Below are positions 7,791-24,127 of a DNA stretch of 64,000 nt, piece after piece. Source of the stretch: Acidimicrobiaceae bacterium (GTDB lineage Bacteria > Actinomycetota > Acidimicrobiia > Acidimicrobiales > RAAP-2); the NCBI GenBank assembly GCA_003153575.1, contig PLZW01000016.1, positions 65,895 through 129,894 on the forward strand, given 5' to 3'. The notes below the pieces were generated by a model. That model saw nothing but the letters and a program-made list of their open reading frames with translations. It had not been told where the DNA came from and made no database searches. The position numbers and the translations under genes are program-made. Every line of letters begins with the position of its first letter. Within the stretch, counting starts at the first letter, position 1.

Positions 7791-8180
7791 TCAGGTGACG
7801 AACTCCGCCGTGCGCCGATGGAAGCGCCACGTCCCGTCCGAGTGGTGGAGGACGTCGTGGTACCTGCCGACGAGCTGGATCGACCAGCCTTCCCTGCCCT
7901 TCAGGAGGAAGAGCACGTCGCTACTGGCCCGGGCCTCGTCGCCGTCCCAGTCGGTCACATGGGTGTTCACGACAACATGGCGCTGGGGCCGCACGGGCGT
8001 CCACTCGGCGAATGCCTTGCGGAGCGAGTCGTGGCCCTCGTGGGTCCCGAGGCCCGGGATCTCGCAGGCGCCATCCGGGCAGAAGGTGGCGACGATGTCG
8101 TCGGTCCGGCCGTCGTCGAGCGCCTGGGCGTAGGCGGCCAGAGTGGCGCGGATGCCCTCTGCCGCATCAGCGAAGGTCAT
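7791..8180 (-). CDS. SnoaL-like / NTF2-fold protein
   Basis: A 129-residue NTF2-fold protein, the fold of SnoaL cyclases, ketosteroid isomerases and small subunits of ring-hydroxylating oxygenases. Typical features are the N-terminal helix ending in ALDDGRTDDIVATF and C-terminal strands with W-x-x-RRTAEFV. The chosen ATG has GGGAGG about 11 bases upstream; an in-frame TTG at 8222 would overlap the oxygenase stop. Because it follows the Rieske alpha-subunit gene by 31 bases and no classical beta subunit is present, it could act as that subunit. This is inference. Confidence 0.85.
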   Translation of the reverse strand: MTFADAAEGIRATLAAYAQALDDGRTDDIVATFCPDGACEIPGLGTHEGHDSLRKAFAEWTPVRPQRHVVVNTHVTDWDGDEARASSDVLFLLKGREGWSIQLVGRYHDVLHHSDGTWRFHRRTAEFVT

Positions 8181-9608: not shown

Positions 9609-9632
9609 AGTATACTAACCGGTCGGTACAGT
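9609..9632. promoter_or_regulatory. Divergent promoter with shared TetR-type operator (site 1)
   Basis: The 16-mer at 9615-9630 reads CTAACCGGTCGGTACA and fits the consensus TGTACCGNNCGGTACA found at several promoters here. A consensus-like -10 box TATACT lies on the minus strand at 9609-9614 (toward the Rieske gene), and TACAGT on the plus strand at 9627-9632 (toward the monooxygenase), partly inside the repeat. A bound repressor would cover both boxes. Confidence 0.65.
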
Positions 9633-9699
9633 TTTCAGAGGACGCATCTGGCGGGACCGAAGCCGCGGATGACACAGTGACGGAACGACGCCCGGCTCC

Positions 9700-11358
9700 A
9701 TGATGAACCATCCCGAACCCACACACGAGCACGACCCGGGACCGCTGGACGCAGACGTGCTCATCGTGGGTGCCGGGGTGACCGGCATCCACCAGCTGTA
9801 CCTGGCCCGTGAAGCCGGCTTCTCCGTGCGGCTGCTCGAAGCCGGCGACGGCGTGGGCGGCACGTGGTACTGGAACCGGTATCCCGGGTGCCGGTTCGAC
9901 TCCGAGAGCTACACCTACGCCTACCTGTTCTCGAAAGAGCTCTTCGACGAGTGGGAGTGGCGCGAGCAGTTCGCCGAACAGCCCGAGACCGAGCGCTACC
10001 TCAACCACGTTGTCGACCGCTTCGACCTCCGTCGCCACATGCGGTTCGACGCCAGGGTCACATCCGCCACCTTCGACGAGCCCACGGCGACATGGACGGT
10101 GGTGACCGACGATGGTACGAAGTCCAGGTCGCGGTACCTGATCGCCGCCACCGGCGTCCTCTCGGTGCCGTTCTACCCGGATGTGCCGGGCCGCGCCGAC
10201 TTCCGGGGCCAGTCAATGCACACGGGGCGGTGGCCGGCGGCCCCGGTCGACCTCACGGCCAAGCGCGTCGCCGTCATCGGCACCGGGTCGAGCGGCGTCC
10301 AGATCGCCCCCGTCATCGTCGACGAGGTCGCCTCGCTCACGGTGTACCAGCGCAGCGCCAACTGGTGCACCCCCCTCAACAACGCCCCCATCACGTCCGA
10401 CGAGCAGAAGCAGCTGAGGGTCGGGTTCGAGGCCATGAGCGAGGTGCTGAATACCTCGACGGCCGGGTTCCTGCACCCCGCCAACGACCGTTCCGCCTTC
10501 GACGATACCGAGGAGGAGCGGCAGGCGTTCTTCGAGACGATGTGGAGGAGTCCGGGCTTCTCCAAGCTGTCCAGCAACTATGCCGACGTCCTGTTCGACG
10601 ACGGCGCCAACGCCGAGTGGTGCGAGTTCATCACCAGGAAGATCCGGGGCATCGTCCAGGATCCCGGGACGGCGGACAAGCTCATCCCGAAGGACCACGG
10701 CTTCGGGGAGAAGCGCCCACCGTTCGTGACCGGCTACTACGAGATGTTCAATGACCCGAAAGTCTCGCTCGTCGATCTCAAGCAGACGCCGATCGAGCGG
10801 ATCACCGAACGCGGCATCGAGACGGCCGATGGGGTCCAGGAGTTCGACGTCATCGTGTGGGCAACCGGGTTCGACTTCGGCACCGGTGCCTTGTTGCGAA
10901 TGGGGGTACGGGGTCGGGACGGCCTCGCCCTCGTCGACCACTGGGCCGAGGGTCCGACGACGTTCCTCGGGGTGCAGACGACCGGCTTCCCCAACTTCTT
11001 CTTCCCCGGTGGGCCGCACGCCGCGGCCGGCAACAACCCGCGGTACAACGGCGATCAGGTCGAGTTCATCACCCGAGCGCTCGCGTCGTTGCGCGATGAC
11101 GGGTTCGACACCATCGAAGTGGGTCCGGAGGCAGAAGAATCGTGGACCGCCATGGTCGACCGGGGTGCGGGACAGTCCCCGTTCGGCGAGGCCAGCTACT
11201 TCTTCGGCACGAATATCCCCGGCAAGCCCCGGAAGTACCTCCTGAACTCGGGCGGGCGGCCGAAGCTCTTCAAGGAAATTGCCAAGGTCGAGGCCAACGA
11301 CTACCAGGCCTTCCGCCGGACGCGCACGTCAGACGGTGGCAACCGGGGTCAACGGTGA
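9700..11358 (+). CDS. Flavin-containing Baeyer-Villiger monooxygenase
   Basis: A 552-residue FAD- and NADPH-dependent monooxygenase. The FAD-binding GAGVTG lies at residues 24-29, the Baeyer-Villiger fingerprint FRGQSMHTGRWP at 168-179, the NADPH-binding GTGSSG at 194-199, and an ATGFD segment in the C-terminal half. These enzymes insert oxygen next to a ketone, turning cyclic ketones into lactones. The start is one of two adjacent ATGs, without a strong ribosome-binding site. Its 3' end overlaps the convergent cyclase gene by 30 bases. It is the plus-strand partner of operator site 1. Confidence 0.95.
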   Translation: MMNHPEPTHEHDPGPLDADVLIVGAGVTGIHQLYLAREAGFSVRLLEAGDGVGGTWYWNRYPGCRFDSESYTYAYLFSKELFDEWEWREQFAEQPETERYLNHVVDRFDLRRHMRFDARVTSATFDEPTATWTVVTDDGTKSRSRYLIAATGVLSVPFYPDVPGRADFRGQSMHTGRWPAAPVDLTAKRVAVIGTGSSGVQIAPVIVDEVASLTVYQRSANWCTPLNNAPITSDEQKQLRVGFEAMSEVLNTSTAGFLHPANDRSAFDDTEEERQAFFETMWRSPGFSKLSSNYADVLFDDGANAEWCEFITRKIRGIVQDPGTADKLIPKDHGFGEKRPPFVTGYYEMFNDPKVSLVDLKQTPIERITERGIETADGVQEFDVIVWATGFDFGTGALLRMGVRGRDGLALVDHWAEGPTTFLGVQTTGFPNFFFPGGPHAAAGNNPRYNGDQVEFITRALASLRDDGFDTIEVGPEAEESWTAMVDRGAGQSPFGEASYFFGTNIPGKPRKYLLNSGGRPKLFKEIAKVEANDYQAFRRTRTSDGGNRGQR

Positions 11359-12387
11359 GCCGACGATTCCGGGCATCCGTAGTGGCGGTGCGGTGAGCAG
11401 GAACCGGCTCCGCTTGTGGTCGCGCAGCCAGGTTGCCAGCTCGTGCAGGTACCACATCTCGCCCAGCGGGACGCCCAGCTTGAACAGGCAGAGGTTGTGG
11501 ATCGGGAGGAACGAGTGGCGGCTCTCGTCACGGTCCCGGCCGGTCAGACCCTCGACCGCGTAGTTGTCCGCCACCAGCGCCGAGATCTTCGAGTCGGCGA
11601 TCCATTCCAGAAGCGACTGGTCGCGGGCATCGAGGTAGGTGCACAGCGTGTGGATCTTCGCCGGGTCGGGGTCGCGGTCGTACTCCAGGATCTTGGTGGC
11701 GAACCCGGTGTGGAGCAGGAGCATGTCCCCGGGCTCGACGACGACATCGTCCGCCGCCATGATCCCCTCGAGCGTCTCGCGGTCGACCCCTCGCCAGTCA
11801 TGGCCCAGGTGGTGGGCCAGGTCGACGAGCACCCCCCGGCCCTGGACACCGTGGTACGCCATGTGCTCGAGTCCGAGGTGGTGGGCGAAGCAGCGGTGGG
11901 CACCGCCGTCGCCGGCGGCGTCGGCCCGCGGCCCGACCAGGTCGGTGCCGGCGCGGTAGCCGTTGTAGTACACGGGCTCTTCGACCCCGTCGTCGTCGGC
12001 GTCGAATTCGGCGCCGACGTGGGCCAGGGAGTCCCACTGGGTCGAGTACTGGAGCGACAGGGTGACCACATCGTCCGCCCACACGTCGACGTAGCGGGGG
12101 TCGCCGTACTGGTCCATCTCGCTCATGTGGATGTTGTAGAAGGTGCCGGCGTTGCCGTCCATGTCCTCGGTCGGTGCCAGGACCGGCGGGTGGCGCCGCT
12201 GGTTGAGTGCGGTCCCCCCGGGGTAGTCGAGCGGCAGACTCAGGCAGAAGCTGATGCCCGCCTCGACCTCGCGGACCCCTTCGAGGACCTTGGCGGGGGT
12301 GACCAGGTTGATGCGGCCGAGTTCGTCGTCGTCGCCCCAGTCGCCCCAGGTCGAGCCGGGCGGGCGCTGCTTCCACCGTTTCGTCAT
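11329..12387 (-). CDS. Cyclase family protein (kynurenine-formamidase-like hydrolase)
   Basis: A 352-residue member of the cyclase family (PF04199), metal-dependent hydrolases related to bacterial kynurenine formamidase and isatin hydrolase. The metal-binding region resembles the family in WDSLAHVGAEF and the later AHHLGLEHMAYHGVQGRGVLVD. The ATG has AAGGAG upstream. Next to a Baeyer-Villiger enzyme it could open a lactone or amide ring; no direct evidence of the substrate exists in the sequence. It is transcribed divergently from the amidohydrolase gene across operator site 2. Confidence 0.88.
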   Translation of the reverse strand: MTKRWKQRPPGSTWGDWGDDDELGRINLVTPAKVLEGVREVEAGISFCLSLPLDYPGGTALNQRRHPPVLAPTEDMDGNAGTFYNIHMSEMDQYGDPRYVDVWADDVVTLSLQYSTQWDSLAHVGAEFDADDDGVEEPVYYNGYRAGTDLVGPRADAAGDGGAHRCFAHHLGLEHMAYHGVQGRGVLVDLAHHLGHDWRGVDRETLEGIMAADDVVVEPGDMLLLHTGFATKILEYDRDPDPAKIHTLCTYLDARDQSLLEWIADSKISALVADNYAVEGLTGRDRDESRHSFLPIHNLCLFKLGVPLGEMWYLHELATWLRDHKRSRFLLTAPPLRMPGIVGSPLTPVATV

Positions 12388-12441
12388 GGTTCCTGCTCCT
12401 TCCGGGCGTGTCGGTCTACCCTGGTCATCCGGACGCGTTGC

Positions 12442-12461
12442 ACTGTACCGACCGGTTGGAT
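12442..12461. promoter_or_regulatory. Divergent promoter with shared TetR-type operator (site 2)
   Basis: The 16-mer at 12444-12459 reads TGTACCGACCGGTTGG. Read on the minus strand it shares ACCGGTCGGTACAGT exactly with the right half of site 1. That strand carries a -10-like TACAGT (12442-12447) directed at the cyclase gene; the plus strand shows an AT-rich GGATTAAG toward the amidohydrolase gene. Confidence 0.65.
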
Positions 12462-12549
12462 TAAGTTGCGAACGCGGTTCGCGTAGGCCGCGAAGTAGCG
12501 TTCCGGTCCTGGCCAGCGATCCCGGGACCGCCGCGAGGAGGCAGCCATC

Positions 12550-13794
12550 ATGTCGCAGAGCGAACTCGTCGTCTCGGCCGACGGACACATGCTCGAACCG
12601 ATCGACTTGTTCCGCACCCGGCTCCCGAAGCACCTGCGGGAGCGGGGGGTCTGGGAAGAGGACTTCGAGATCGAGCCGCTCGTCGAAGGCGGCGCCCGCA
12701 TCTTCCGCCGCCTGCACACCCCAGGTTATGAGGGCTGGACGATCTCCCGGTACCGCCAGACAGGCGGGCGGATGCCCGAAGGCACCCCCGAGATCATCCT
12801 CGACGACATGCGGCTCGACGGGGTCGACGTCCAGGTCATGCACCCGAACCTGTCGCTCTTCGGGCTCTACTCGGACGATCACGAGCTGTCCATGGCCCAC
12901 GCCCGTGTGTACAACGACTTCATCATCGAGCGGTTCGCGCCCTACTTCTCCCGGATCGCCCCGACCGCCCCGATCCCGCTGACCGACATCGACGACGCCG
13001 TCGCCGAGATCGAGCGGGTCGCCGCCGCAGGATTCCGGGCCATCCTGCTCCCGGCGATCGCGCCGAAGCCCTATTACTCGCGGGACTTCGACCCGGTGTG
13101 GGATGCGGCCGTGGCCAACGGCGTCCACGTCTTCATCCACACCCAGACCGGCGGCGTGAAGGTCAACGATCCGGCGTCAACGACGCTCAAAGTGGTCATG
13201 GAGTCGGCGGCTCAGGTCAATCAGCCGATGACCGAGAAGTCGGCCTCGAAACGGATGATCACCCAGTGCGTCTACAGCACGATGGTCCCCCAGCAGATCA
13301 TGTGCGAGCTCATCGGTGGTGGTGTCCCCGAACGGTACCCTGACCTGCATTTCGCCCTGATCGAGTTCAACGCCCACTGGCTGGCGTCGCTGGTCGGCTC
13401 CATGGACAAGTGCTGGGTGACCGGCATCGGCCAGGACGCCGACTGGTGGCTCGGGTACTGGGACGAGAACCGCCCCGACGACGACCAGCCGAGCATGGCC
13501 CAACTGTTCCGTCTCAACGAGAAGTGGCCCTACCCGCTGAAGCCGAGCGAGTACGTGAAGCGCCAGTTCCACATTTCCTTCCAGGACGACCCCGTCGCCA
13601 TCGCCTGCCGGCACGTGACCGGGCTGTCGACCATCGTGTGGGGCAACGACTACCCGCACGCCGAGGGGACGTTCCGCGGGAGTCGGGAAGTGATCGCCAC
13701 CCAACTGGGCGGCCTCCCCGCCGAGGAGCGTGCCGCCATCGTCGGCGGCACGCTGGGCCGACTCCTCGGGTTTGAGGCTCCGGTGCCGGTCTGA
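12550..13794 (+). CDS. Amidohydrolase-2 family metal-dependent hydrolase/decarboxylase
   Basis: A 414-residue TIM-barrel amidohydrolase of the ACMSD-like branch. Probable metal ligands are Asp11 and His13 (ADGHM), the His of FIHTQTG, the His of EFNAHW and the Asp of WGNDYPHAEG. The branch contains decarboxylases and C-C or C-N hydrolases of catabolic pathways. A strong GAGGAGG lies just before the ATG. The gene shares operator site 2 with the cyclase gene. Its stop overlaps the CTG proposed as start of the following SDR, so the two are co-transcribed. Confidence 0.92.
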   Translation: MSQSELVVSADGHMLEPIDLFRTRLPKHLRERGVWEEDFEIEPLVEGGARIFRRLHTPGYEGWTISRYRQTGGRMPEGTPEIILDDMRLDGVDVQVMHPNLSLFGLYSDDHELSMAHARVYNDFIIERFAPYFSRIAPTAPIPLTDIDDAVAEIERVAAAGFRAILLPAIAPKPYYSRDFDPVWDAAVANGVHVFIHTQTGGVKVNDPASTTLKVVMESAAQVNQPMTEKSASKRMITQCVYSTMVPQQIMCELIGGGVPERYPDLHFALIEFNAHWLASLVGSMDKCWVTGIGQDADWWLGYWDENRPDDDQPSMAQLFRLNEKWPYPLKPSEYVKRQFHISFQDDPVAIACRHVTGLSTIVWGNDYPHAEGTFRGSREVIATQLGGLPAEERAAIVGGTLGRLLGFEAPVPV

Positions 13795-14705
13795 GCCAGC
13801 TCGACTTCAAGGGACGCGTCGCTGTCGTCACCGGGGCCGGACGCGGTATCGGCCAGGCCTACGCGCGCCTGCTCGCCGAACGGGGGGCCAACGTCGTCGT
13901 CAACGACCTCGGCGGTTCGATGGACGGCGTCGGAACCGATGGCGCACCGGCGGCCACCACGGTCGCCGGCATCGTCGAGGCAGGTGGGGTTGCGGTCGCC
14001 GACACGAGCGACGTGTCCACCGTGGCCGGTGCCGACGCCCTCGTGGCCAACGCGGTCGGACAGTACGGCCGCATCGACATCGTCATCAACAACGCCGGGG
14101 TGATCCGCTGGGCGGGATTCCCGGATGCCGACGCCGACAACCTGGCCCTCCACCTGGCTGTCCATGTCGGAGGCTCGTTCAACACGACGCGCGCCGCCTG
14201 GTCCCACATGGTCGACCAGAGGTACGGCCGCATCGTCATGACCACCTCCACCGGCATGCTCGGACTGCCCACCAATACCTCGTACGCCACCGCCAAGGGC
14301 GGTGTCGTGGGGCTCACCCGCAGCCTCAGCACGGCAGGTGCCGCCCACGGCATCAGGGCCAACTGCATCGCGCCGGCGGCGATGACCCGGATGGCCGGGC
14401 CGGGTTCCGACGACCTCCGGATGGCGCCCGAACTCGTCGCCCCGATGGCGGCCTTCCTCGCCCACGAGAGCTGCCCCGTCAGCGGGGAGATCTTCACCGC
14501 CGGCTTCGGCCGGTTCGCCCGCCTGTTCATCGCCTCCACCGTGGGGTACGTCCACACCGGCCCGGTGCCGACGATGGAGGACGTGGCCGAGCATTGGGAG
14601 ACCATCAACGACGAGACCGGCTATTTCGTGCCCGGCGACCTCATGGCCTGGTCGACCGCCTTCATGTCCCACCTCGGCGACGACGGTGCGTCCTCTGGAT
14701 CCTGA
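13791..14705 (+). CDS. SDR family dehydrogenase, MFE-2-like, with a CTG start
   Basis: A 304-residue SDR resembling the (3R)-hydroxyacyl-CoA dehydrogenase domain of peroxisomal multifunctional enzyme 2: GAGRGIG near residue 14, a long insertion after the second strand (VVNDLGGS), NNAG, and YATAK. The frame is closed by a TGA at 13773-13775, and no ATG, GTG or TTG occurs before the Rossmann motif. The only near-start codon is CTG at 13791, overlapping the amidohydrolase stop as CTGA. The next ATG, 13920, would delete the cofactor site. The predicted role is oxidation of a beta-hydroxyacyl-CoA in the same pathway. Confidence 0.85.
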   Translation: MSQLDFKGRVAVVTGAGRGIGQAYARLLAERGANVVVNDLGGSMDGVGTDGAPAATTVAGIVEAGGVAVADTSDVSTVAGADALVANAVGQYGRIDIVINNAGVIRWAGFPDADADNLALHLAVHVGGSFNTTRAAWSHMVDQRYGRIVMTTSTGMLGLPTNTSYATAKGGVVGLTRSLSTAGAAHGIRANCIAPAAMTRMAGPGSDDLRMAPELVAPMAAFLAHESCPVSGEIFTAGFGRFARLFIASTVGYVHTGPVPTMEDVAEHWETINDETGYFVPGDLMAWSTAFMSHLGDDGASSGS

Positions 14706-14719
14706 GGGGTGCGGCGGAC

Positions 14720-15487
14720 CTACTCGTCGAGCAGGTCGGGGTGCTGTTCGACGATCCAGTCGTAGAGGGGTTGGAACTGCCGCCAGCCGGTGCGATGGCC
14801 CCCGGTCTGGCCCGCGGTCAACTCGGCCACGTCCGGTTCGATCAGGACAGGGGTGCCGGCCGCTTCGGCGGCCAGTTGGGCCTGGCACGTACGTTCCATC
14901 GTGACGAACCACCAGGCCGCCTCGTCGACGGTGCGGCCGACGGTGAGCAGACCGTGGTTCGCCAGGATGGCCGCCTTGCAGTCCCCGAGGGCCTGGGCGA
15001 TGCGCTTGCCCTCGTCGGGATCGAGCACCGCGCCGTCGTAGTCGCCGAAGACCACGTGATCGTCGTAGAACGCACAGGCGTCCTGGGTGAGCGGGTCGAG
15101 GGGCCGCTTCAGTGACGACCACGCTTTTCCGAACACCGAGTGCGAGTGGGCGGCGGAGACCACGTCCGGGCGCGCCGCATGGATCTGCGAGTGGATCACG
15201 AAGGCCGCCTCGTTGACCGGCCAGGTGCCGTCCACGACTTCGCCACGGTGATTGACGAGCAGGAGGTCCTTCACCCGGATCTGCTTGAAGTTCATGCCCA
15301 GGGGGTTGACCCAGAACTGATCGGGAAACTCGGGGTCGCGTGCCGTGATGTGCCCGGCGGTGCCCTCGTCGAAGCCGAAATGCCCGAAGATCCGGAAGGC
15401 GGCGGCCAGTCGTTGCTTGCGGTGGGTGCGCTCCTCCTGCACGGTGTCGAACTCCGGGAACACATGCGGTGTGCGGTCGGACGCCAT
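14720..15487 (-). CDS. Class II aldolase/adducin family protein
   Basis: A 255-residue zinc-dependent class II aldolase-fold protein. The metal ligands appear in AAHSHSVFG and LANHGLLTVG, and the N-terminal segment with GTAGHITARDP is family-typical. It may cleave or decarboxylate a hydroxy-acid intermediate; adducin-like members have varied functions. The ATG at 15487 is used here; a TTG at 15514 is also possible and would place the start against the operator. It is divergent from the acyl-CoA dehydrogenase gene across operator site 3 and convergent with the SDR gene. Confidence 0.88.
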   Translation of the reverse strand: MASDRTPHVFPEFDTVQEERTHRKQRLAAAFRIFGHFGFDEGTAGHITARDPEFPDQFWVNPLGMNFKQIRVKDLLLVNHRGEVVDGTWPVNEAAFVIHSQIHAARPDVVSAAHSHSVFGKAWSSLKRPLDPLTQDACAFYDDHVVFGDYDGAVLDPDEGKRIAQALGDCKAAILANHGLLTVGRTVDEAAWWFVTMERTCQAQLAAEAAGTPVLIEPDVAELTAGQTGGHRTGWRQFQPLYDWIVEQHPDLLDE

Positions 15488-15515
15488 CTGCCGATCGTAC
15501 CGCCGCCGTGCCAAG

Positions 15516-15540
15516 GTTGTACCGCTCGGTCCAATAGGAT
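15516..15540. promoter_or_regulatory. Divergent promoter with shared TetR-type operator (site 3)
   Basis: The 16-mer at 15518-15533 reads TGTACCGCTCGGTCCA, an inverted repeat fitting the shared consensus with one arm nearly perfect. A -10-like TACAAC lies on the minus strand (15516-15521) toward the aldolase gene. TAGGAT at 15535-15540 on the plus strand sits only six bases before the dehydrogenase ATG, suggesting a leaderless transcript. Confidence 0.62.
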
Positions 15541-15546
15541 CGTGCC

Positions 15547-16695
<1,149 letters not shown>

Positions 16696-16714
16696 GCCAG
16701 ACGGCCCTGCCGAG

Positions 16715-18706
16715 TCAGACGGCGGCGAGGCGGCGGACGGCGGCGGCGATGTCGTCGCGGTCCGGGAGCCAGGCCTGCTCGAGGCCGGGAGCGTACGGTG
16801 CCGGACTGGTCGCCGCCCCGACCCGTTGGATCGGTGCGTCGAGATCCCAGAACGCTTCGTTGACCACGGTGGCGGCGATCTCGGCCCCGATGCCGAACGG
16901 GACGACCGCTTCGTGGGCGATCAGGAGGCGACTGGTCCGGTGCACCGACTCGAGGATCGGCGCCATGTCGAGGGGAGCCACCGTCCGGAGGTCGATCACC
17001 TCCACGGAGATCCCTTCGGTGTCCAGCCGATCGGCGGCGGCCACCGCCTCGTGGACCATCCGTGACACCGAGACGACGGTCACATCGGTTCCGGGTCGGA
17101 CCACCGCCGACACGCCGATGGGGAGTACGTAGTCGGCCGGCGGCTGCGGTCCCTTCATGCCGTAGAGGAGACGGTTCTCGATGAACACCACCGGATTCGG
17201 GTCTTGGATGGCCGCGCGCAGCAGGCCGTAGGTATCGGCCGGTGTCGAGGGCATCACCACGGTGAGACCCGGGACGTGAGCCAGCAGCGCCTCGAGGCTC
17301 TGCGAGTGCTGACTGCCCGAAGAACGGCCCGCTCCGAACTGGGTTCGGACGGTCAGCGCCATCTCGGCGGCCCCGCCGGTCATGAACGGCAGTTTGGCGG
17401 CCTGGTTGAGCAGTTGATCGAAGCAGACGCCGACGAAGTCGAGGTACATCAGCTCGACGACCGGGTGCATGCCAGCCATGGCCGCACCGACGCCCAACCC
17501 CATGATGGCCGTCTCCGAGATCGGCGTGTCCCGCACCCGGTCGCCGAACCGGTCGCGCAGGCCCCGCATGAGTCCGAATACGTTGCCGCCATCACCGACG
17601 TCGATCCCGGCGACGAACACCCGGTCATCGTCGGCGAGTTCGGCTTCAAGCGCGTCATGGACCGCGTCCATCATGCGGAACACCGGTGCATCCGAATGGG
17701 GCGGCTGCGGCTCGGCCCGCACCGGTCTCGCCCGCAGAACGAAGTCGGTGACGGTGGCCACATCCGGCTCGGCCAGCCGCCGGGCTGCCTCGACGGCGGT
17801 GTCCAGGTCGTCGGCCACCGACGACTCCAGCGCCTTCAGCTCGTCGTCGCCAGCGCCCACTGCGCGGAGCCGGGCCTCGTGCACCAGCAGCGGGTCACGC
17901 GCTTTCCACTCCTGGACCTCCTCCGCGGACCGGTAGCGCTCGGGATCGCCCTCGTAGTGTCCGTGCCACCGGAAGGTCGCCGCCTCGATCACGGCGGGAC
18001 CACCTCCGGCCCGTACCGCGTCGACGACAGTCTCCATTGCCGCAGCCGTCGCCAGGACGTCGTTCCCGTCGACGGCTATGTAGGGCATGCCGTAGCCTTC
18101 TGCCCGCCGCTCGAGAGGCGCCCCGTGCTGCGTCGATGCCGGTGAGAACTCGGCGTAGCCGTTGTTCTCGCAGAAGAAGACAACCGGTAGTTGCCATACG
18201 GCGGCGAGGTTCATGGCCTCGTGGAAGGCGCCCTGAGCCGGCGCGCCGTCGCCGAAGAACGCCACCGCGACACCGCCGTCGGCGCGGAGCTGCGAGGCGG
18301 TCGCCGCTCCGACGGCGATCGGCACACCGGCGGCCACGATCCCGTTGGCCCCGAAGATCCCGAGCGTCGGGTCAGCGATGTGCATGGAGCCGCCCCGGCC
18401 CCGGTTCGTCCCCTGGTCCTTGCCCATCAGCTCGGCGAACATCCCGAGCGGGTCGAGGCCCTTGGCCAGGCAGTGCCCATGGCCCCGGTGGGTCGAGGTG
18501 ATGACATCGGACAGGCGGAGGGGCCAGCACGCCCCCACGGCCGCCGCCTCCTGCCCGATCGAGAGGTGGACGAAACCGGGGACCTCGCCGTCGCGGTAGA
18601 GCGCGGACACCCGCTCCTCGAAGCCGCGGATCACGAGCATCCGGCGGTACATCTCGAGGAGATCGCCGGACGGGTGCCCGGAAGGCGAGGACGGGCCGGC
18701 AGTCAC
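16715..18706 (-). CDS. Thiamine-dependent dehydrogenase E1, fused alpha and beta subunits
   Basis: A 663-residue fusion of the two E1 subunits of 2-oxoacid or acetoin dehydrogenase complexes. The alpha part (about 1-330) has the thiamine diphosphate motif from GDG at 152-154 to NN at 181-182; the beta part (about 345-663) has PISETAIMGLGVGAAMAGMHP and the C-terminal transketolase domain. No E2 or E3 gene is nearby, so those must be elsewhere if needed. The GTG start is only about ten bases from operator site 4 and has no ribosome-binding site. A -10-like TACACT at 18714-18719 places transcription start close to the GTG, consistent with a leaderless message. Confidence 0.92.
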   Translation of the reverse strand: MTAGPSSPSGHPSGDLLEMYRRMLVIRGFEERVSALYRDGEVPGFVHLSIGQEAAAVGACWPLRLSDVITSTHRGHGHCLAKGLDPLGMFAELMGKDQGTNRGRGGSMHIADPTLGIFGANGIVAAGVPIAVGAATASQLRADGGVAVAFFGDGAPAQGAFHEAMNLAAVWQLPVVFFCENNGYAEFSPASTQHGAPLERRAEGYGMPYIAVDGNDVLATAAAMETVVDAVRAGGGPAVIEAATFRWHGHYEGDPERYRSAEEVQEWKARDPLLVHEARLRAVGAGDDELKALESSVADDLDTAVEAARRLAEPDVATVTDFVLRARPVRAEPQPPHSDAPVFRMMDAVHDALEAELADDDRVFVAGIDVGDGGNVFGLMRGLRDRFGDRVRDTPISETAIMGLGVGAAMAGMHPVVELMYLDFVGVCFDQLLNQAAKLPFMTGGAAEMALTVRTQFGAGRSSGSQHSQSLEALLAHVPGLTVVMPSTPADTYGLLRAAIQDPNPVVFIENRLLYGMKGPQPPADYVLPIGVSAVVRPGTDVTVVSVSRMVHEAVAAADRLDTEGISVEVIDLRTVAPLDMAPILESVHRTSRLLIAHEAVVPFGIGAEIAATVVNEAFWDLDAPIQRVGAATSPAPYAPGLEQAWLPDRDDIAAAVRRLAAV

Positions 18707-18713
18707 GGTTTGT

Positions 18714-18733
18714 AGTGTACTGGTCGGTACAAT
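18714..18733. promoter_or_regulatory. Divergent promoter with shared TetR-type operator (site 4)
   Basis: The 16-mer at 18716-18731 reads TGTACTGGTCGGTACA, with five-base outer arms (TGTAC/GTACA) that match perfectly. A plus-strand -10 box TACAAT at 18728-18733 faces the SDR gene; a minus-strand TACACT at 18714-18719 faces the E1 gene. Both overlap the repeat. Confidence 0.68.
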
Positions 18734-18790
18734 GAGCGCCAGAGTGATGTCACCTCCGATGCGGAGTACCCGGTCGCGACGAGGACCCGC

Positions 18791-19537
18791 ATGACCACGC
18801 CACGCCGGGTGGTGGCGATCACCGGGGCGGGCGGAGCCCTCGGCGCGGCGGTAGCCCGCCAGCTGGCAGCCGAGCCCCGCACCGACCTGGTCCTGAGCGA
18901 CATCAGTGCGCCGTCGCTCGACGCCACCGTCGAAGGACTGCCTGACACGGGCGGCGGTGTCGCGACCGAGTTGGCCGACGTCAGCGACTTCGCCCAGGTC
19001 GACACGGTCGTGGCGTTGGCGGTCGAGCGGTTCGGGCGCCTCGACGTGCTCATCAGCAACGCCGGGGTGCTCTCGGCCAATGGACGGATCCACAACCTCG
19101 CCGACGAGGAGTGGGAACGGGCCTTCCGGATCAACGTGCTCGGCGCCGTCCACGGGATCCGTGCCGCCGTCGGGGTCATGCGCCCGCAGCATGCCGGCTC
19201 GATCGTGCTCACAGCATCGGTCTCGGGACTGACGGCGTGGTCGCACGCCGCGCCGTACTGCGCGACGAAGGCGGCGGTGATCCAGCTCGCCAAGGTCGCC
19301 GCCGTCGAATACGCCCGCGACGGGATCCGCGTCAACTGCGTGTGCCCGGGATCGTTCCGATCCGCCATCCACGCCGACCTTCCCCAGGAGGCGGTGGACG
19401 CCATCGCCGAACGGCATCCGCTCGGACTCGGCTCGGCGGACGACCTGGTCGGCGCCTACTCCTACCTGGCCGGCGACGCCTCGCGTTGGACCACCGGCTC
19501 GGCCATGGTCGTCGACGGCGGGTACTCGGCGCCTTGA
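18791..19537 (+). CDS. SDR family NAD(P)-dependent oxidoreductase
   Basis: A 248-residue classical SDR. The cofactor motif is GAGGALG near residues 12-18, SNAG stands in place of NNAG, and the catalytic Tyr-x3-Lys is YCATK. A C-terminal VVDGGYSAP is typical. GAGGA lies upstream of the ATG. It is transcribed from operator site 4 and ends four bases from the convergent TetR gene, so regulator and target lie tail to tail. It probably handles one hydroxyl/ketone step of the island's pathway. Confidence 0.92.
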   Translation: MTTPRRVVAITGAGGALGAAVARQLAAEPRTDLVLSDISAPSLDATVEGLPDTGGGVATELADVSDFAQVDTVVALAVERFGRLDVLISNAGVLSANGRIHNLADEEWERAFRINVLGAVHGIRAAVGVMRPQHAGSIVLTASVSGLTAWSHAAPYCATKAAVIQLAKVAAVEYARDGIRVNCVCPGSFRSAIHADLPQEAVDAIAERHPLGLGSADDLVGAYSYLAGDASRWTTGSAMVVDGGYSAP

Positions 19538-19541
19538 GGAT

Positions 19542-20177
19542 CTACCCCTTGTCGTGTCCCTCGGCGGGACCGGCAACCCCCCGGATGAAGATGTCGGCGA
19601 ACGGCTTGGCCACGTCCCGGGCCGAGAGGGTTCCGCCCGCCTTGAGCCACAGGTACGTGTAGTTGTGCATCCCGAGCCACGCCAGTGCGGTCAGCCTCGG
19701 GTCCAAGGCACGGAACTCGCCCGTATCGACGCCCGCCCGGAAGACCGCCTCGACGCGGCGCTCGTACTCCCGACGGCGCCCCTGGAACTGCTCGGCCCGC
19801 TCACCGGTCAGCGCCGGGAACTCGTGGAGGAAGACCCAGACATGGTCCGGGTAGCGGTGGATGACGTCGAGGAGCTCCTCGCCGAGCATGGCCAGCTGCT
19901 GCGACGGCGTGCCGCCCGCCTCGGCGACGCGGTCGGCCCCGAGCATCACCTCATCCATGACCCGGTCGTGGATGGCGGCGAGGAGCGCCTCCTTGGAGCC
20001 GATGTAGTGGTAGAGCGCGCCTTTGCCGAGATCGTTGGCGACACAGAGTTCGGTGATGCCCGTGGCGTGGTAGCCGCGCCGGGCGAAGACGCTGGCGGCC
20101 GTGTCGACGATCGCCTGGCGGCGCAATTCCCGCTTGCTCGGGCCTGGGGATTCGCTGGTCGCCTGAGCCCGTGCCAT
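19542..20177 (-). CDS. TetR family regulator, KstR2-like
   Basis: A 211-residue TetR repressor. The N-terminal helix-turn-helix spans about residues 18-65 (ELRRQAIVDTAASVFARRGY, then GALYHYIGSKEALL). The C-terminal half, with WLGMHNYTYLWLKAGGTLSA and a closing ADIFIRG, resembles the KstR2 ligand-binding domain. KstR2 senses a CoA thioester of steroid ring breakdown. By position it is the best candidate for the protein binding sites 1-4, but this is inference. Its ATG follows a weak ribosome-binding region. Confidence 0.9.
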   Translation of the reverse strand: MARAQATSESPGPSKRELRRQAIVDTAASVFARRGYHATGITELCVANDLGKGALYHYIGSKEALLAAIHDRVMDEVMLGADRVAEAGGTPSQQLAMLGEELLDVIHRYPDHVWVFLHEFPALTGERAEQFQGRRREYERRVEAVFRAGVDTGEFRALDPRLTALAWLGMHNYTYLWLKAGGTLSARDVAKPFADIFIRGVAGPAEGHDKG

Positions 20178-20496
20178 TCACAGGGACGCTAGCAAGGGTC
20201 ACCTGGGTGGGCCATTTACCGATCATGACGACGATCCCCATCGACCTGCCCCAACGCACCCCGGACCGGTCCGCCGAGGACCGTCGCAACTGGCCCGCCG
20301 TCGGTATGCTGATGCGCCGCGGCGGGTCCCCCTCGCGGCACGGAGCGCCAGATGTCGGGCGGGCGGGAGATGCGGAGCACATGATGACCACCCGCAACGG
20401 AGGAGCCCCGGCGCGCCGAGGGTGTCCGTCCCCCCGCTCGACGCTGACCGGCCACTTCAGTCCCTCCGGACCCTCTGATCCCACCGGATCCAGGAC
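20178..20496. other. Intergenic region between TetR and acyl-CoA ligase genes
   Basis: About 320 bases between divergent genes. Open frames here have no recognisable protein character. A perfect 12-bp palindrome, CGGACCGGTCCG, lies at 20262-20273 and shares the central ACCGGT with the operator motif, so it may be an autoregulatory site. No convincing -10 box is centred on it. Confidence 0.4.
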
Positions 20497-22035
20497 GTGA
20501 CGGCCGGCACGGCGATGCCGGCCGACATGAACTGGTTCGCCGTCCTCGACCACCACGCAGTCCGCACGCCCGCCAAGGCACTCACGGTCTTCGAAGGCCG
20601 TACCACCACCTACGGCGAGATGGCCGGACGGGCGAGGTCGCTGGCCGCCGGCCTCCGCGCCCGCGGCGTCCGGCGCGGTGACGTGGTCGGGCTCCTGGCC
20701 TTCAACTGCCCAGAGTTCCTGGAGACGATCTTCGCCGCCAACTACCTCGGTGCCGTGGCCATGCCGATCAACTGGAGGCTCGCCGCCCCGGAGGTGCGCT
20801 ACATCCTCGAGCACTCGGAGTCCCGGGTGCTCGTGTGCGACGAGGCGCTCGTCGACCTGGGCGCCGAGGCGACGGTGGGCCTCGAAGGCACCGTGGTCCG
20901 TGCGTGCCTGTCGTCCGAGGCCCGCGACGGATGGACGGCGTTCGACGACCTCCACGGATCCCCCGACGGGCTCGTGCCGGCCTCGGTGGCCGCCGAGGAC
21001 GTGCACCGCCTCATGTACACGTCGGGCACCACGGGTCGCCCGAAAGGCGTCATGATCACCCACGCCAATCTGGCGTGGAAGAACATGGCCCATGTCATCG
21101 AATTCGGTTTCACCGGTGCCGATCTGGGGCTCGCCTGCGGGCCGCTGTACCACGTCGGCGCGCTCGATCTCACGACCACGTCGCTCATCGCCACCGGGGC
21201 CACGGTGATCATCCACCGGTCGTTCGACGCGGCCGCCGTCGTCGACGAGCTCGAGCGGTCGCGGGTGACCACCGTGTGGCTGGCACCCGCCATGGTCAAT
21301 GCGATCATGGCTCTGCCCGACATCGAAGGTAGGGACCTGTCGTCCGTGCGGCTGATCGTCAACGGCGGCGAGAAGATGCCCATCCCGCTCATCGAGCGGA
21401 TCCAACGGACATTCCCCTCGGCTTGGTTTGCCGACGCGTACGGGCTCACCGAGACGGTCTCCGGAGACACCTTCCTCGACCGGGACAGCATCGTCGCCAA
21501 ACTCGGGAGCGTCGGCCGGCCGTGCCTCTACCTGGACCTCGACATCTGGGACGAGGAGGGACGATCGGTACCAGCCGACGTACGTGGGGAGATCGTCATG
21601 CGGGGCCCCAAGGTGTTCCCGGGTTACTGGCGGGATCCGGAAGCGACCGCCACGGCATTCGCCGGCGGCTGGTTCCATACCGGTGACATCGGCGTCCGCG
21701 ACGAGGACGGTTACCTGTTCATCGTCGACCGTCTCAAGGACATGATCGTGTCGGGCGGCGAGAACATCGCCGGCTCGGAGGTCGAGCGGGTGCTCTACGA
21801 GCACGCATCGGTCGGCGAGGCCGCCGTCGTGGGACGACCCGACGACCGGTGGGGCGAAGTGCCGGTGGCCTTCGTGGTCCTGCGGGCCGGAACGACCGTG
21901 ACGACGGACGAGCTCCTCGAGCACTGCCGCGCCAGGCTGGCGCGCTACAAGGTCCCGAAGGACATCACCTTTCTCGACGCACTACCCCGCAATCCGTCAG
22001 GCAAGGTGCTGAAGCGGGAGCTCCGGGGCGGATGA
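20497..22035 (+). CDS. AMP-dependent acyl-CoA synthetase/ligase
   Basis: A 512-residue ANL-superfamily enzyme that activates a carboxylic acid to its CoA thioester through an acyl-AMP. The P-loop-like motif YTSGTTGRPKGVM lies near residue 175, then AYGLTE, GWFHTGDIG, DRLKDMIVSGGENI, and the C-terminal lysine in NPSGKVLKREL. The GTG start is the longest option; ATG at 20515 or 20527 is also possible because no ribosome-binding site is clear. It is divergent from the KstR2-like gene and is a natural entry step for the beta-oxidation enzymes around it. Confidence 0.93.
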   Translation: MTAGTAMPADMNWFAVLDHHAVRTPAKALTVFEGRTTTYGEMAGRARSLAAGLRARGVRRGDVVGLLAFNCPEFLETIFAANYLGAVAMPINWRLAAPEVRYILEHSESRVLVCDEALVDLGAEATVGLEGTVVRACLSSEARDGWTAFDDLHGSPDGLVPASVAAEDVHRLMYTSGTTGRPKGVMITHANLAWKNMAHVIEFGFTGADLGLACGPLYHVGALDLTTTSLIATGATVIIHRSFDAAAVVDELERSRVTTVWLAPAMVNAIMALPDIEGRDLSSVRLIVNGGEKMPIPLIERIQRTFPSAWFADAYGLTETVSGDTFLDRDSIVAKLGSVGRPCLYLDLDIWDEEGRSVPADVRGEIVMRGPKVFPGYWRDPEATATAFAGGWFHTGDIGVRDEDGYLFIVDRLKDMIVSGGENIAGSEVERVLYEHASVGEAAVVGRPDDRWGEVPVAFVVLRAGTTVTTDELLEHCRARLARYKVPKDITFLDALPRNPSGKVLKRELRGG

Positions 22036-22068: not shown

Positions 22069-22659
22069 CTATGACGTGCCGCCCCGCCCGAAGTCGTCCA
22101 GCAGACCCGCCACCAGTGCCCGCGTCTCGGCATGGCCGGTGGCCATCCCCAAGGACTCCTCCAGCACCAGGATCTGCGAGATGCTCGTCATGACGGTCAT
22201 GACGGCGACCGGGGGAAAGCGATCGGTGTCGATCCCCCGCTCGGCCATCACGGTGGCCAGCACTTCCGTCTGCTTGAGGCGGAACAGCTCGGCGTAGCGG
22301 GCGATCTCCGACCGGATCACCTTGCGGTGGTTGGCCAGCGCCACGAACTCCATGGTGAGGGCGGTGCTCGCCGGATCGTCGCCGAACGCCCAGATGGCGT
22401 GCAAGGGTCGTCCCGAGGTCAGTACCATCGACAGGTGTTCGAGGCCGATTTCGGCCCGCCGTCGGAATGCCGCGAGGAACAGGTCGTCCATCGTCCGGAA
22501 GTAGTAGTGCACCAGCGGCGGCTTCAACTCGGCCCGCTGGGCGATGCGCCGGGAGCTCACCGCGGCGTAGCCCTCCTCCACCATGATCTGTTCTGTGGCG
22601 TCCAGGAGCGCGGCGCGACTCTTCGAGTCCTCGGCACCGATCCTGCGGTTCGAAACCAT
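22069..22659 (-). CDS. TetR/AcrR family transcriptional regulator
   Basis: A 196-residue TetR repressor. The helix-turn-helix is at about residues 15-60 (RAALLDATEQIMVEEGYAAV, RRIAQRAELKPPLVHYYF). The C-terminal half, not assigned to a named subfamily, should bind a small hydrophobic ligand. It is divergent from the P450-SDR operon, and the 28-bp palindrome at 22776-22803 between them is its probable operator. A related palindrome at 36536-36559 suggests a second target. Confidence 0.92.
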   Translation of the reverse strand: MVSNRRIGAEDSKSRAALLDATEQIMVEEGYAAVSSRRIAQRAELKPPLVHYYFRTMDDLFLAAFRRRAEIGLEHLSMVLTSGRPLHAIWAFGDDPASTALTMEFVALANHRKVIRSEIARYAELFRLKQTEVLATVMAERGIDTDRFPPVAVMTVMTSISQILVLEESLGMATGHAETRALVAGLLDDFGRGGTS

Positions 22660-22775
22660 GGGTTGTCACCTGTGACTCGTCCGGAGGGGCCGCGCTCGAC
22701 CCCCACTCAGCATTCCAGAGCGCCGACCGGGCACTCGCCCAGTCGGCGCTCGGGGCCTGTTGACCCGTCTCCGTG

Positions 22776-22803
22776 CCAATGCTAAGCAATCGCTCAGCAT
22801 TGG
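22776..22803. promoter_or_regulatory. Palindromic operator before the P450 operon
   Basis: A 28-bp inverted repeat with 12-base arms, one mismatch and the 4-base centre AATC: CCAATGCTAAGC then GCTCAGCATTGG. It lies 16 bases before the P450 ATG and about 120 bases before the TetR start. It shares the 20-base pattern TGCTAAGCARTCGCWCAGCA with the site at 36536-36559. Confidence 0.75.
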
Positions 22804-22819
22804 CGACGAGGGAGTAGGG

Positions 22820-24127
22820 ATGAGCAACTACGAGACGGTCGACTTCTTCATGGACGAGTCCCTGATCGAGGATCCGTACCCGTACTTCGAGTATCTCCGT
22901 TCGAAGTGCCCGGTGGTGGCGACGCCGCACTACGGCGTGGTGGCAGTGTCCGGCTACGACGAGGCCACGGAGGTCTACCGGAATCTCGAGACGTTCTCGT
23001 CCTGTATCTCGGTGATCGGTCCCTTCGCCCAGTTCCCCGAGCCGCTCGTGGGGGACGATGTCAGCGCCATCATCGACCGTCATCGTGACCAGCTCCCGAT
23101 GAATGAGCACATGGTCACCATGGATCCGCCGATGCACACCAAGGAGCGGGCATTGGTGATGCGCCTGCTGACCCCGAAGCGGCTCAAGGAGAACGAGGCG
23201 TTCATGTGGCGCGCCGCGGACCGTCAACTCGACGAGTTTCTCGCCGACGGCCACTGCGAATTCATCAGTGCCTATGCCCAGCCCTTCGCCATGCTGGCCG
23301 TCGCTGATGTCCTGGGCGTGCCCGAGGAGGACCATCCCGCGTTCCGCAAGATCTTCGGATTGAGCGCGCCGCCCGGAGGGATCGGTGCCGCGCACGACCA
23401 GTCGGGTGTGGAAGTCGATGACCCGGCGTCTCTCAATGCGCTCTCGTCGCTGGACGACTGGTTCGCCAATTACATCGAGGATCGCCGATCGGAGCCCCGC
23501 CACGACGTACTGACCGATCTGGCCCTGGCGAAGTACCCCGATGACTCGACCCCCGAAATGGCCGCAGTGGTTCGGACAGCCACCTTCCTGTTTGCCGCTG
23601 GCCAGGAGACGACCGCTCGCCTGCTCGCCGTGGGGCTCAAGTACCTCGCCGAGTACCCGGAGCTGCAGGACGAGTTGCGGGCCCACCGCGAGCGGATCCC
23701 GGACTTCGTCGAGGAGGCCCTCCGGATCGAGAGCCCGGTGAAGGCCGACTTCCGGCTCGCCCGCCGGGCGGTCACGGTCGGCGGAGTCGAAATCGCACCG
23801 GGGACCCCCGTCATGCTGCTGAACGGCGCGGCCAACCGCGACCCCCGGCGGTTCGAGGACCCGGACGAGTTCCGCGTCGACCGGCGGAACGCCAAGGAGC
23901 ACCTCGCCTTCGGGCGCGGGGCCCACTCCTGTCCGGGAGGGCCTCTGGCCCGGGCCGAAGGCCGCATCAGCATCGAGCGCATCCTGGACCGGACACGGGA
24001 CATCCGGCTCTCCGAGGAGCACCACGGCCCGCCCGGGGCCCACCGGTTCGCGTACGAGCCCACCTGGGTGCTGCGCGGGCTCCACGCCCTCCACATCGAG
24101 TTCACCCCGACCGAGGCACCGGCATGA
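22820..24127 (+). CDS. Cytochrome P450
   Basis: A 435-residue soluble bacterial P450. The I-helix oxygen-binding motif AGQETT lies at about 260-265, the K-helix ExxR in EALRIE near 300, and the haem-binding Cys371 in FGRGAHSCPGG. It hydroxylates an unknown substrate with electrons from a ferredoxin, probably the one at 27199. The ATG at 22820 follows GGAG; an upstream in-frame start would run through the palindromic operator. It overlaps the next SDR by four bases (ATGA). Confidence 0.96.
   Translation: MSNYETVDFFMDESLIEDPYPYFEYLRSKCPVVATPHYGVVAVSGYDEATEVYRNLETFSSCISVIGPFAQFPEPLVGDDVSAIIDRHRDQLPMNEHMVTMDPPMHTKERALVMRLLTPKRLKENEAFMWRAADRQLDEFLADGHCEFISAYAQPFAMLAVADVLGVPEEDHPAFRKIFGLSAPPGGIGAAHDQSGVEVDDPASLNALSSLDDWFANYIEDRRSEPRHDVLTDLALAKYPDDSTPEMAAVVRTATFLFAAGQETTARLLAVGLKYLAEYPELQDELRAHRERIPDFVEEALRIESPVKADFRLARRAVTVGGVEIAPGTPVMLLNGAANRDPRRFEDPDEFRVDRRNAKEHLAFGRGAHSCPGGPLARAEGRISIERILDRTRDIRLSEEHHGPPGAHRFAYEPTWVLRGLHALHIEFTPTEAPA

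What the first reader, a model, noticed from the sequence alone, without database searches (positions are those of the whole stretch)
9609..18733. One operator motif embedded in four divergent promoters of a catabolic island
The sites at 9615-9630, 12444-12459, 15518-15533 and 18716-18731 all fit TGTACCGNNCGGTACA. At each, a half-site reading CGGTACARY also forms or touches a -10 box, so a bound repressor would shut both directions. The genes served are a Rieske oxygenase operon, Baeyer-Villiger monooxygenase, cyclase-family hydrolase, amidohydrolase-SDR, aldolase, acyl-CoA dehydrogenase, E1 dehydrogenase and an SDR. This set implies a co-regulated, apparently undescribed pathway for a cyclic compound, with the KstR2-like TetR at 19542 the likely regulator.
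Basis: partly seen in the sequence, partly recalled or inferred. Interest (0 to 1): 0.85.

Follow-up and report, generated by a model that had tools for sequence, protein, structure and literature searches.

The report
Shared operator of actinobacterial catabolic cluster
Four divergent promoters in this actinobacterial genome carry the same repressor-binding word, and related bacteria keep that word at the same promoters, so a neighbouring repressor gene very probably switches a whole, so far unnamed, degradation pathway on and off together.

Summary
The sites are real but the stated consensus is too strict. The four matches carry 3, 3, 1 and 1 mismatches to TGTACCGNNCGGTACA, a count that 11 of 100 shuffles also reach. 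The shared word is TGTACCGNYCGGT: three sites exact, the fourth with one mismatch. Genome-wide the word is not enriched; 51 of its 62 non-island near-matches lie inside predicted genes.

The strong evidence is comparative. With a matrix built only from the window, the operator is at the same promoters in relatives: Rieske 8 of 8, BVMO 6 of 8, ACAD 13 of 18, E1 20 of 25, TetR's own promoter 9 of 19. Sites are 72-92% identical between loci, their flanks mostly about a third. All 8 of 397 genomes with the strict E1-type site, the window's own included, hold the TetR ortholog.

Best reading: the TetR at 19542-20177, whose helix and operator resemble Thermus PfmR, represses this cluster from sites over or beside core promoters, probably relieved by a CoA ester. 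The pathway looks CoA-dependent, perhaps for a polycyclic isoprenoid; substrate and binding are inferred. Known kind of switch, apparently undescribed regulon.

The parts
9615..9630 (.). operator 1, between Rieske (-) and BVMO (+); TGTACCGACCGGTTAG on the minus strand
   Evidence: same promoter in 8 of 8 relatives for Rieske and 6 of 8 for BVMO
12444..12459 (.). operator 2, between cyclase-family hydrolase (-) and amidohydrolase (+)
   Evidence: 7 of 11 (cyclase) and 7 of 10 (amidohydrolase) relatives; 18 of 19 cyclase promoters in more distant loci
15518..15533 (.). operator 3, between class II aldolase (-) and acyl-CoA dehydrogenase (+)
   Evidence: 13 of 18 ACAD and 4 of 7 aldolase promoters
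18716..18731 (.). operator 4, between E1 (-) and SDR2 (+)
   Evidence: 20 of 25 E1 promoters; mean pairwise identity 0.92 over 21 sites, the window's included
20215..20230 (.). degenerate candidate operator 5, about 46 b upstream of the TetR start, in the TetR / AMP-ligase gap; weak
   Evidence: score 10.6 with the window matrix; 9 of 19 relatives have a site of score 13 or more at this promoter
7791..8180 (-). SnoaL-like protein
   Evidence: PF13577
8212..9576 (-). Rieske oxygenase alpha-type
   Evidence: PF00355, PF00848
9700..11358 (+). Baeyer-Villiger-type monooxygenase, nearest solved relative OTEMO
11329..12387 (-). cyclase-family (PF04199) hydrolase
12550..13794 (+). Amidohydro_2 protein, nearest solved relatives PtmU3 and DitZ
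13791..14705 (+). SDR1; probable CTG start overlapping the amidohydrolase stop
14720..15487 (-). class II aldolase/adducin family protein
   Evidence: PF00596; NF004855 over cut-off
15547..16695 (+). acyl-CoA dehydrogenase
16715..18706 (-). fused alpha/beta TPP-dependent E1 dehydrogenase
   Evidence: PF00676, PF02779, PF02780; start by alignment with relatives
18791..19537 (+). SDR2
19542..20177 (-). TetR-family regulator proposed to bind the operators
   Evidence: PF00440, PF17932 TetR_C_24; 3VPR (PfmR) E=1.4e-21
20497..22035 (+). AMP-binding CoA ligase, divergent from TetR; recurrent cluster member

Best explanation
The four sites are operators of one TetR-family repressor, the product of 19542-20177, and mark a local regulon for a CoA-dependent catabolic cluster. 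Steps: a dimer binds the 16-bp pseudopalindrome (shown here: the sites and their conservation; inferred: binding). Each operator overlaps or adjoins the -10 or -35 region of two divergent promoters, so one bound dimer can block both (inferred from sequence). A pathway intermediate, most likely the CoA thioester made by the ligase encoded divergently from the repressor, releases it (inferred by analogy with MbdR; for KstR-type relatives recalled). The enzymes would then hydroxylate (Rieske, P450, amidohydrolase-fold oxygenase), oxidise (SDRs), expand a ring (BVMO), open the lactone (cyclase-family hydrolase) and shorten the CoA ester (ACAD, E1) of a polycyclic isoprenoid (inferred).
For: Conservation at orthologous promoters with a window-only matrix in 29 non-redundant loci with close orthologs: Rieske 8/8, BVMO 6/8, cyclase 7/11, amidohydrolase 7/10, aldolase 4/7, ACAD 13/18, E1 20/25, TetR 9/19; 74 hits in 551,692 b where about 5.5 are expected from a first-order Markov simulation, 58 at island promoters. 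Mean site identity 72-92% against 32-59% in the 24 b on either side. In 5 Frankia-type loci amidohydrolase 5/5, ACAD 5/5, TetR 3/3; in 53 other, more distant loci cyclase 18/19. Strict E1-type site in 8 of 397 genomes of the order, TetR ortholog in 14 of 397, all 8 among the 14 (hypergeometric 2e-13; 6e-12 without the window's own genome). The recognition helix LGKGALY(H/Y)YIGSKE is well conserved with a few single changes and resembles PfmR's, whose measured operators include CTTACCGACCGGTTGG (KD 0.4 nM, passage of PMC7022988), equal to site 2 in 14 of 16 letters.
Against: No binding, expression or start-site data. Genome-wide the word is not enriched (17 rows against 22 reversed; 67 against 81 with one mismatch). 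Of 62 non-island one-mismatch rows 11 lie outside predicted genes, and two of these score 13 or more: C9:71323 (17.3) and C40:3584 (16.4), below the island sites (19.0-23.4) but perhaps further targets. TetR and operator share a cluster, so co-inheritance explains part of the co-occurrence. In the window the TetR promoter has only a degenerate site. Misses: cyclase 4, amidohydrolase 3, aldolase 3, ACAD 5, E1 5, BVMO 2, TetR 10; SDR1 1/16 and SDR2 0/20. In the 53 distant loci E1 4/35, ACAD 2/41, SDR1 3/19 and TetR 3/30 only. The assembly is 76% complete.
Confidence: 0.78

Rival explanations
1. The sites are true operators, but another regulator binds them: the second TetR at 22069-22659 or an unlinked TetR of the same DNA-binding class.
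For: ACCGNYCGGT is a core shared by several TetR proteins: PfmR (PMC7022988) and Burkholderia PaaR (PMC2770484). Operators are upstream of the cyclase in distant loci whose linked TetR is only about 40-44% identical, and there TetR's own promoter rarely has one (3 of 30). The window TetR promoter lacks a good site.
Against: The second TetR aligns to the first only over the HTH at 27%, its recognition helix differs, and it is present in 4 mapped regions against 24 for the first, the window counted in both (the regions were chosen by E1 or TetR matches, which favours the first). The first TetR carries the operator in its own promoter in 9 of 19 close and 3 of 3 Frankia-type loci.
Confidence: 0.13
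2. The sites are bound by this TetR, which acts as an activator or as both activator and repressor, or the words partly reflect conserved promoter elements.
For: Promoter-like bases next to the sites are conserved too: a TACANT box formed with the end of the E1 site in most loci, and TAGGAT or similar after the ACAD site.
Against: The 16 bases are more conserved than the flanks (0.72-0.92 against 0.32-0.59), and they lie over or beside the core promoter, where TTHB023-type and PaaR-type sites repress (passages of PMC7022988 and PMC2770484).
Confidence: 0.07
3. Chance resemblance of four GC-rich inverted repeats.
Against: Conservation at the same promoters across genera.
Confidence: 0.02
4. The cluster is biosynthetic, or modifies an environmental terpenoid, rather than a catabolic pathway.
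For: The BVMO also matches the pentalenolactone D synthase model below cut-off (249 against 1100 bits), and PtmU3 belongs to a biosynthetic pathway (recalled).
Against: No terpene synthase family among the 30 window proteins scanned with Pfam, of 61 predicted (count of genes). CoA ligase, ACAD, thioesterase and branched-chain-type ABC transporter genes are present; some relatives add HsaD- and KstD-like and extradiol dioxygenase genes.
Confidence: 0.12

Closest known systems
PfmR / TTHB023 of Thermus thermophilus (TetR family, 3VPR)
   Same: TetR dimer class; near-identical operator core (site 2 shares 14 of 16 letters with the TTHA0750 site); sites overlap core promoters and include bidirectional ones; similar recognition helix.
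   Different: Described as controlling phenylacetate and fatty-acid metabolism genes; its linked genes were not compared with this cluster. Outer bases differ (TG.. against (a/c)Y..). A distant relative only (80 bits).
PaaR of Burkholderia cenocepacia (TetR repressor of paa genes)
   Same: Catabolic TetR repressor; inverted repeat ACCGACCGGTCGGT between -10 and -35 of several promoters (passages of PMC2770484).
   Different: Phenylacetate pathway; longer double repeat; protein not compared here.
KstR and KstR2 (steroid regulons of mycobacteria and rhodococci)
   Same: TetR family; KstR2 is a solved relative (E=3e-11); regulon of CoA-dependent steroid degradation and CoA-ester ligand (recalled).
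   Different: Other operator (KstR2 motif AnCAAGnnCTTGnT, recalled); KstR model 27 bits against a cut-off of 280.
Camphor and diterpenoid catabolic clusters (OTEMO; dit)
   Same: BVMO nearest to OTEMO (E=6e-145), which acts on a CoA ester (recalled); amidohydrolase nearest to PtmU3 and DitZ.
   Different: As far as recalled a different gene set (no fused E1, cyclase-family hydrolase or class II aldolase); clusters and operators not compared here.

Membership tests
TetR family regulator | N-terminal TetR HTH domain PF00440 above gathering score | tested here: met
   46.6 bits, cut-off 24
TetR family regulator | binds a palindromic operator as a dimer | not testable with these tools
   pseudopalindromic sites found, no binding assay
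KstR2 | C-terminal ligand domain of the KstR2 group (TetR_C_24) | tested here: inconclusive
   PF17932 at 108 bits; that KstR2 carries this domain is recalled. Sequence match to KstR2 structures E=3e-11, 7th in rank
KstR2 | KstR2 operator AnCAAGnnCTTGnT (recalled) | tested here: not met
   the four sites have the core ACCGNYCGGT or ACTGGTCGGT
PfmR-type operator class | TTHB023 consensus (a/c)Y(g/t)A(A/C)YGryCR(g/t)T(c/a)R(g/t) | tested here: inconclusive
   compared by eye: site 2 fits 13 of 16 positions; positions 1, 2 and 14 do not fit; sites 1, 3 and 4 not counted
PfmR orthology | reciprocal best match and same regulon | not tested
   only a one-way match (E=1.4e-21)
Type I Baeyer-Villiger monooxygenase | FxGxxxHxxxW fingerprint (recalled) and full-length similarity to solved BVMOs | tested here: met
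   FRGQSMHTGRW in the translation; OTEMO E=6e-145 over residues 18-539
amidohydrolase-related dinuclear oxygenase (ARO: PtmU3, SfbO, AibH2) | PF04909 fold with metal ligands and oxygenase activity | tested here: inconclusive
   PF04909; alignment to PtmU3 keeps the ADxHxLEP and DYPHxEGTF stretches; ligand residues and activity not tested
Steroid A/B-ring degradation (HsaC) | HsaC gene in the same genome over the curated cut-off | tested here: not met
   no match at E<=0.001 in the window's genome, 0 of 14 genomes over the cut-off; assembly 76% complete

The most novel reading that the evidence does not exclude
This operator and its TetR define a third, widespread actinobacterial regulon for polycyclic isoprenoids, parallel to KstR and KstR2: a modular pathway in which a CoA-ester-sensing repressor controls ring expansion by a BVMO and ring opening by a cyclase-family hydrolase, and in some relatives also a meta-cleavage arm. 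Of 97 partly redundant stretches searched, three have an HsaD-like hydrolase gene, and in two of the three the operator stands directly before it (G174, score 21.7; L062, score 16.0, shared with a divergent SDR). On a Streptomyces plasmid the cluster shares an 80-kb region with HsaA-, HsaD-, KstD-like and extradiol dioxygenase genes. The two extradiol dioxygenases tested score slightly higher with the biphenyl-type model than with HsaC, so the arm need not be for steroids.
Probability: 0.35. Interest if true: 0.72.

Novelty: new member of a known kind. Interest (0 to 1): 0.52.

Why it matters
A conserved operator gives an objective boundary to a large, uncharacterised catabolic pathway found in Acidimicrobiia metagenome assemblies and in named Streptomyces, Frankia-type, Nocardia and other actinomycetes. 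It turns 'a BVMO near a Rieske oxygenase' into a regulon whose inducer, and so substrate, can be sought with one repressor and a gel-shift or reporter screen.

Tried and rejected
Literal consensus TGTACCGNNCGGTACA: rejected, fits with 3, 3, 1, 1 mismatches and is matched by 11 of 100 shuffles.

Genome-wide enrichment as proof: it fails. Core ACCGNNCGGTNNA gave 78 matches against 127 reversed; TGTACCGNYCGGT with up to one mismatch 67 against 81; TGKACYGNYCRGT 17 rows against 22.

First p-values were discarded because their background contained the sites; replaced. In one search only sites scoring 13 or more were compared, so the site identity is inflated by selection; the flanks are not. That the window sites rank first in the window with a matrix made from them is circular and is not used as evidence.

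Non-island copies: of the 12, 11 are inside genes predicted by my rough gene finder and one is before an AlkZ-like gene (L032). One search had looked at 21 of the 62 non-island rows, one row and the four sites. One search looked at all 62: 51 inside, 11 outside predicted genes, of which C9:71323 (L039) and C40:3584 (L222) score 13 or more. The genes next to these two that I tested on the upstream side gave no Pfam family over its cut-off; an unpredicted frame also runs over the L039 site. Whether they are operators is open.

My gene finder placed the E1 start upstream of site 4 and so called site 4 coding; the GTG at 18706 was preferred because relatives align there. One search used wrong coordinates for Rieske, cyclase, SDR1 and E1; corrected from then on.

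Regulation by KstR2 itself: rejected on operator sequence. Search for a named pathway or regulon: nothing found (asked for PtmU3/DitZ and PfmR; open-access PMC only). Structure prediction was not run.
Full report
What is in the sequence. The four words stand at the stated coordinates, each between two divergently oriented genes. Read in the same direction they are TGTACCGACCGGTTAG, TGTACCGACCGGTTGG, TGTACCGCTCGGTCCA and TGTACCGACCAGTACA. The best short description is TGTACCGNYCGGT: 5 exact copies in the 2,982,648-base assembly, 3 of them here, and site 4 with one mismatch.

Genome-wide. The word is not enriched: TGKACYGNYCRGT gives 17 rows against 22 for the reversed control. Five rows are the four island sites (site 4 is counted on both strands). 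Of the other 12, 11 fall inside genes predicted by a rough gene finder of my own and one is before an AlkZ-like gene. Of the 62 non-island rows of the one-mismatch search, 51 are inside predicted genes and 11 outside. Two of the 11 score 13 or more with the window matrix: TGTACCGGTCGTTCCA at C9:71323 (17.3; the same 16 letters as the ACAD operators of L058 and L066) and CGTACCGCTCGGTAGG at C40:3584 (16.4). The island sites score 19.0 to 23.4, though the matrix was made from them. So the island is where the operators cluster, but a few further targets are possible, and the assembly is only 76% complete.

Conservation. I built a matrix from the four window sites only and applied it to 29 non-redundant loci with close orthologs, mostly labelled as Acidimicrobiia or held without a name in the same order. 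At a score of 13, which a Markov simulation of the window's composition reaches about 10 times per Mb, the operator is upstream of Rieske 8 of 8, BVMO 6 of 8, cyclase 7 of 11, amidohydrolase 7 of 10, aldolase 4 of 7, ACAD 13 of 18, E1 20 of 25 and TetR 9 of 19; SDR1 1 of 16 and SDR2 0 of 20. In all there are 74 hits in 551,692 bases (about 5.5 expected), 58 at these promoters. Among 309 other predicted genes 25 have a hit; 15 of these share a divergent promoter with an island gene. Of the other 10, seven were identified: alpha/beta hydrolases (two), an SDR, an alcohol dehydrogenase, an enoyl-CoA hydratase family protein, a PhyH protein and an ABC transporter protein; three were not. Two of the five E1 misses (G174, G096) are explained by E1 lying directly behind a TetR gene that carries the operator. 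In L062 and L094 E1 has the same position but the TetR promoter scores only 10.8 and 8.7. L068 (10.9) is unexplained.

Site against flank. Over 21 E1 sites the mean pairwise identity is 0.92 in the 16 bases, 0.33 and 0.45 in the 24 bases on either side; ACAD 0.83 (0.33, 0.59), cyclase 0.92 (0.37, 0.32), Rieske 0.83 (0.32, 0.34), TetR 0.72 (0.32, 0.33). Promoters mostly keep their own asymmetry: CAGTACA in 19 of 21 E1 sites, CCAACCGG in 7 of 8 cyclase sites. That is what selection on individual operators looks like. Choosing sites above score 13 inflates the site values.

Depth. In five Frankia-type loci the operator is at amidohydrolase 5 of 5, ACAD 5 of 5, cyclase 3 of 3, TetR 3 of 3 and E1 4 of 5. 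In 53 other, more distant loci it is at cyclase 18 of 19, amidohydrolase 3 of 4 and BVMO 8 of 17, but rarely at E1 (4 of 35), ACAD (2 of 41), SDR1 (3 of 19) or TetR (3 of 30). Many of those are close-kin Streptomyces, so the counts are not independent.

The regulator. The TetR is present in 24 mapped regions, the window included; the regions were chosen by E1 or TetR matches, and one (G316) shows no E1 in the stretch mapped. Its own promoter has the operator in 9 of 19 close loci, often shared with a divergent AMP-ligase gene. In the window that promoter keeps only TTTACCGATCATGACG (20215-20230, score 10.6), which may be a decayed or weak site. In 397 genomes of the order the strict E1-type site TGTACCGRYCAGTACA occurs in 8 and the TetR ortholog (E<=1e-50) in 14, and all 8 are among the 14 (2e-13 if independent; 6e-12 without the window's own genome). 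The protein search scored at most 7 candidates per genome, and co-inheritance of the cluster explains part of the agreement. The TetR was not found at E<=1e-20 in the 13 other genomes of the window's genus examined; among 60 relatives it has 79-80% matches in two other genera of the family and three weak ones (33-37%) elsewhere. The cluster is thus patchy, perhaps mobile.

DNA-binding class. Pfam gives TetR_N and TetR_C_24. Among solved proteins 3VPR ranks third (E=1.4e-21) and KstR2 seventh. 3VPR is PfmR (passage of PMC10636190), also called TTHB023 (passages of PMC7022988). Its selected consensus and measured sites share the core ACCGNYCGGT; one 0.4-nM site, CTTACCGACCGGTTGG, equals window site 2 in 14 of 16 letters. 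The helix LGKGALYHYIGSKE aligns to PfmR's LSKAALYHHFGSKE. Burkholderia PaaR uses ACCGACCGGTCGGT between -10 and -35 (passages of PMC2770484). So the mechanism, repression from a site over the core promoter, is a known kind.

Promoters. TANNNT boxes overlap or adjoin the sites. At ACAD (TAGGAT, 6 b to ATG), aldolase (TACGAT, 6 b to ATG) and E1 (TACACT, 7 b to GTG) the spacing suggests leaderless transcripts.

The pathway. The BVMO is nearest to OTEMO, the amidohydrolase to PtmU3 and DitZ; PtmU3 belongs to a group of amidohydrolase-fold dinuclear oxygenases (PMC10811679, first of three parts read). An AMP-ligase, acyl-CoA dehydrogenases, a thioesterase, a P450 and SDRs surround them. In G174 and L062 the operator is directly upstream of an HsaD-like hydrolase; in G174 an extradiol dioxygenase and a KstD-like gene lie nearby. 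On a Streptomyces plasmid the cluster lies in a region with HsaA-, HsaD-, KstD-like and extradiol dioxygenase genes; there the operator is at amidohydrolase, P450 and cyclase, not at those genes. These Hsa- and KstD-type matches are all below the curated cut-offs, and both extradiol dioxygenases score slightly higher with the biphenyl-type model than with HsaC. Three of 97 partly redundant stretches have an HsaD-like gene, two of them with the operator, and the window's genome has no HsaC match. A CoA-activated polycyclic isoprenoid is thus my best guess for the substrate, not a result. By analogy with MbdR, whose inducer is 3-methylbenzoyl-CoA (passages of PMC4424350), the inducer is probably a CoA ester.

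Verdict. Observation partly confirmed (consensus corrected); interpretation partly supported, made stronger for the regulator and weaker for 'KstR2-like'. I found no paper naming this regulon or cluster in the search listings (open-access PMC text; subscription papers were not searched).

Noticed in passing
13791-13920: SDR1 has no ATG, GTG or TTG start in frame before 13920, inside the Rossmann region; a CTG at 13791 overlapping the amidohydrolase stop (CTGA) is the likely start.
   Followed up: partly
18707-18790: Several relatives have a further SDR gene (cluster c2) between E1 and SDR2 (e.g. G353, G018, L056); the window lacks it there, so SDR2 may have taken over its promoter and operator.
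   Followed up: partly
22069-24870: A second TetR with P450 and SDR; similar genes lie together near the cluster in G018 and L067.
   Followed up: no
L176:281-296; L062:4057-4072: Operator directly upstream of HsaD-like meta-cleavage hydrolase genes in two relatives.
   Followed up: partly
L039:1501-1516 (G000:C9:71323); L222 near 1501 (G000:C40:3584): Two operator-like words of the window's own genome outside predicted genes, the first identical to the ACAD operator of L058 and L066; neighbouring genes unidentified.
   Followed up: partly
L186 and L187 (NZ_CP108236.1 420000-500000): Streptomyces sp. NBC_00080 linear plasmid carries a large catabolic region with this cluster, steroid-type genes and a mycofactocin gene.
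   Followed up: partly
L127:1192-1212: Two overlapping operator-like cores in the Rieske/BVMO gap, like the double repeat of PaaR-type sites.
   Followed up: no
L090:4244-5182: LigB-type extradiol dioxygenase gene near the amidohydrolase in Frankia-type loci.
   Followed up: no
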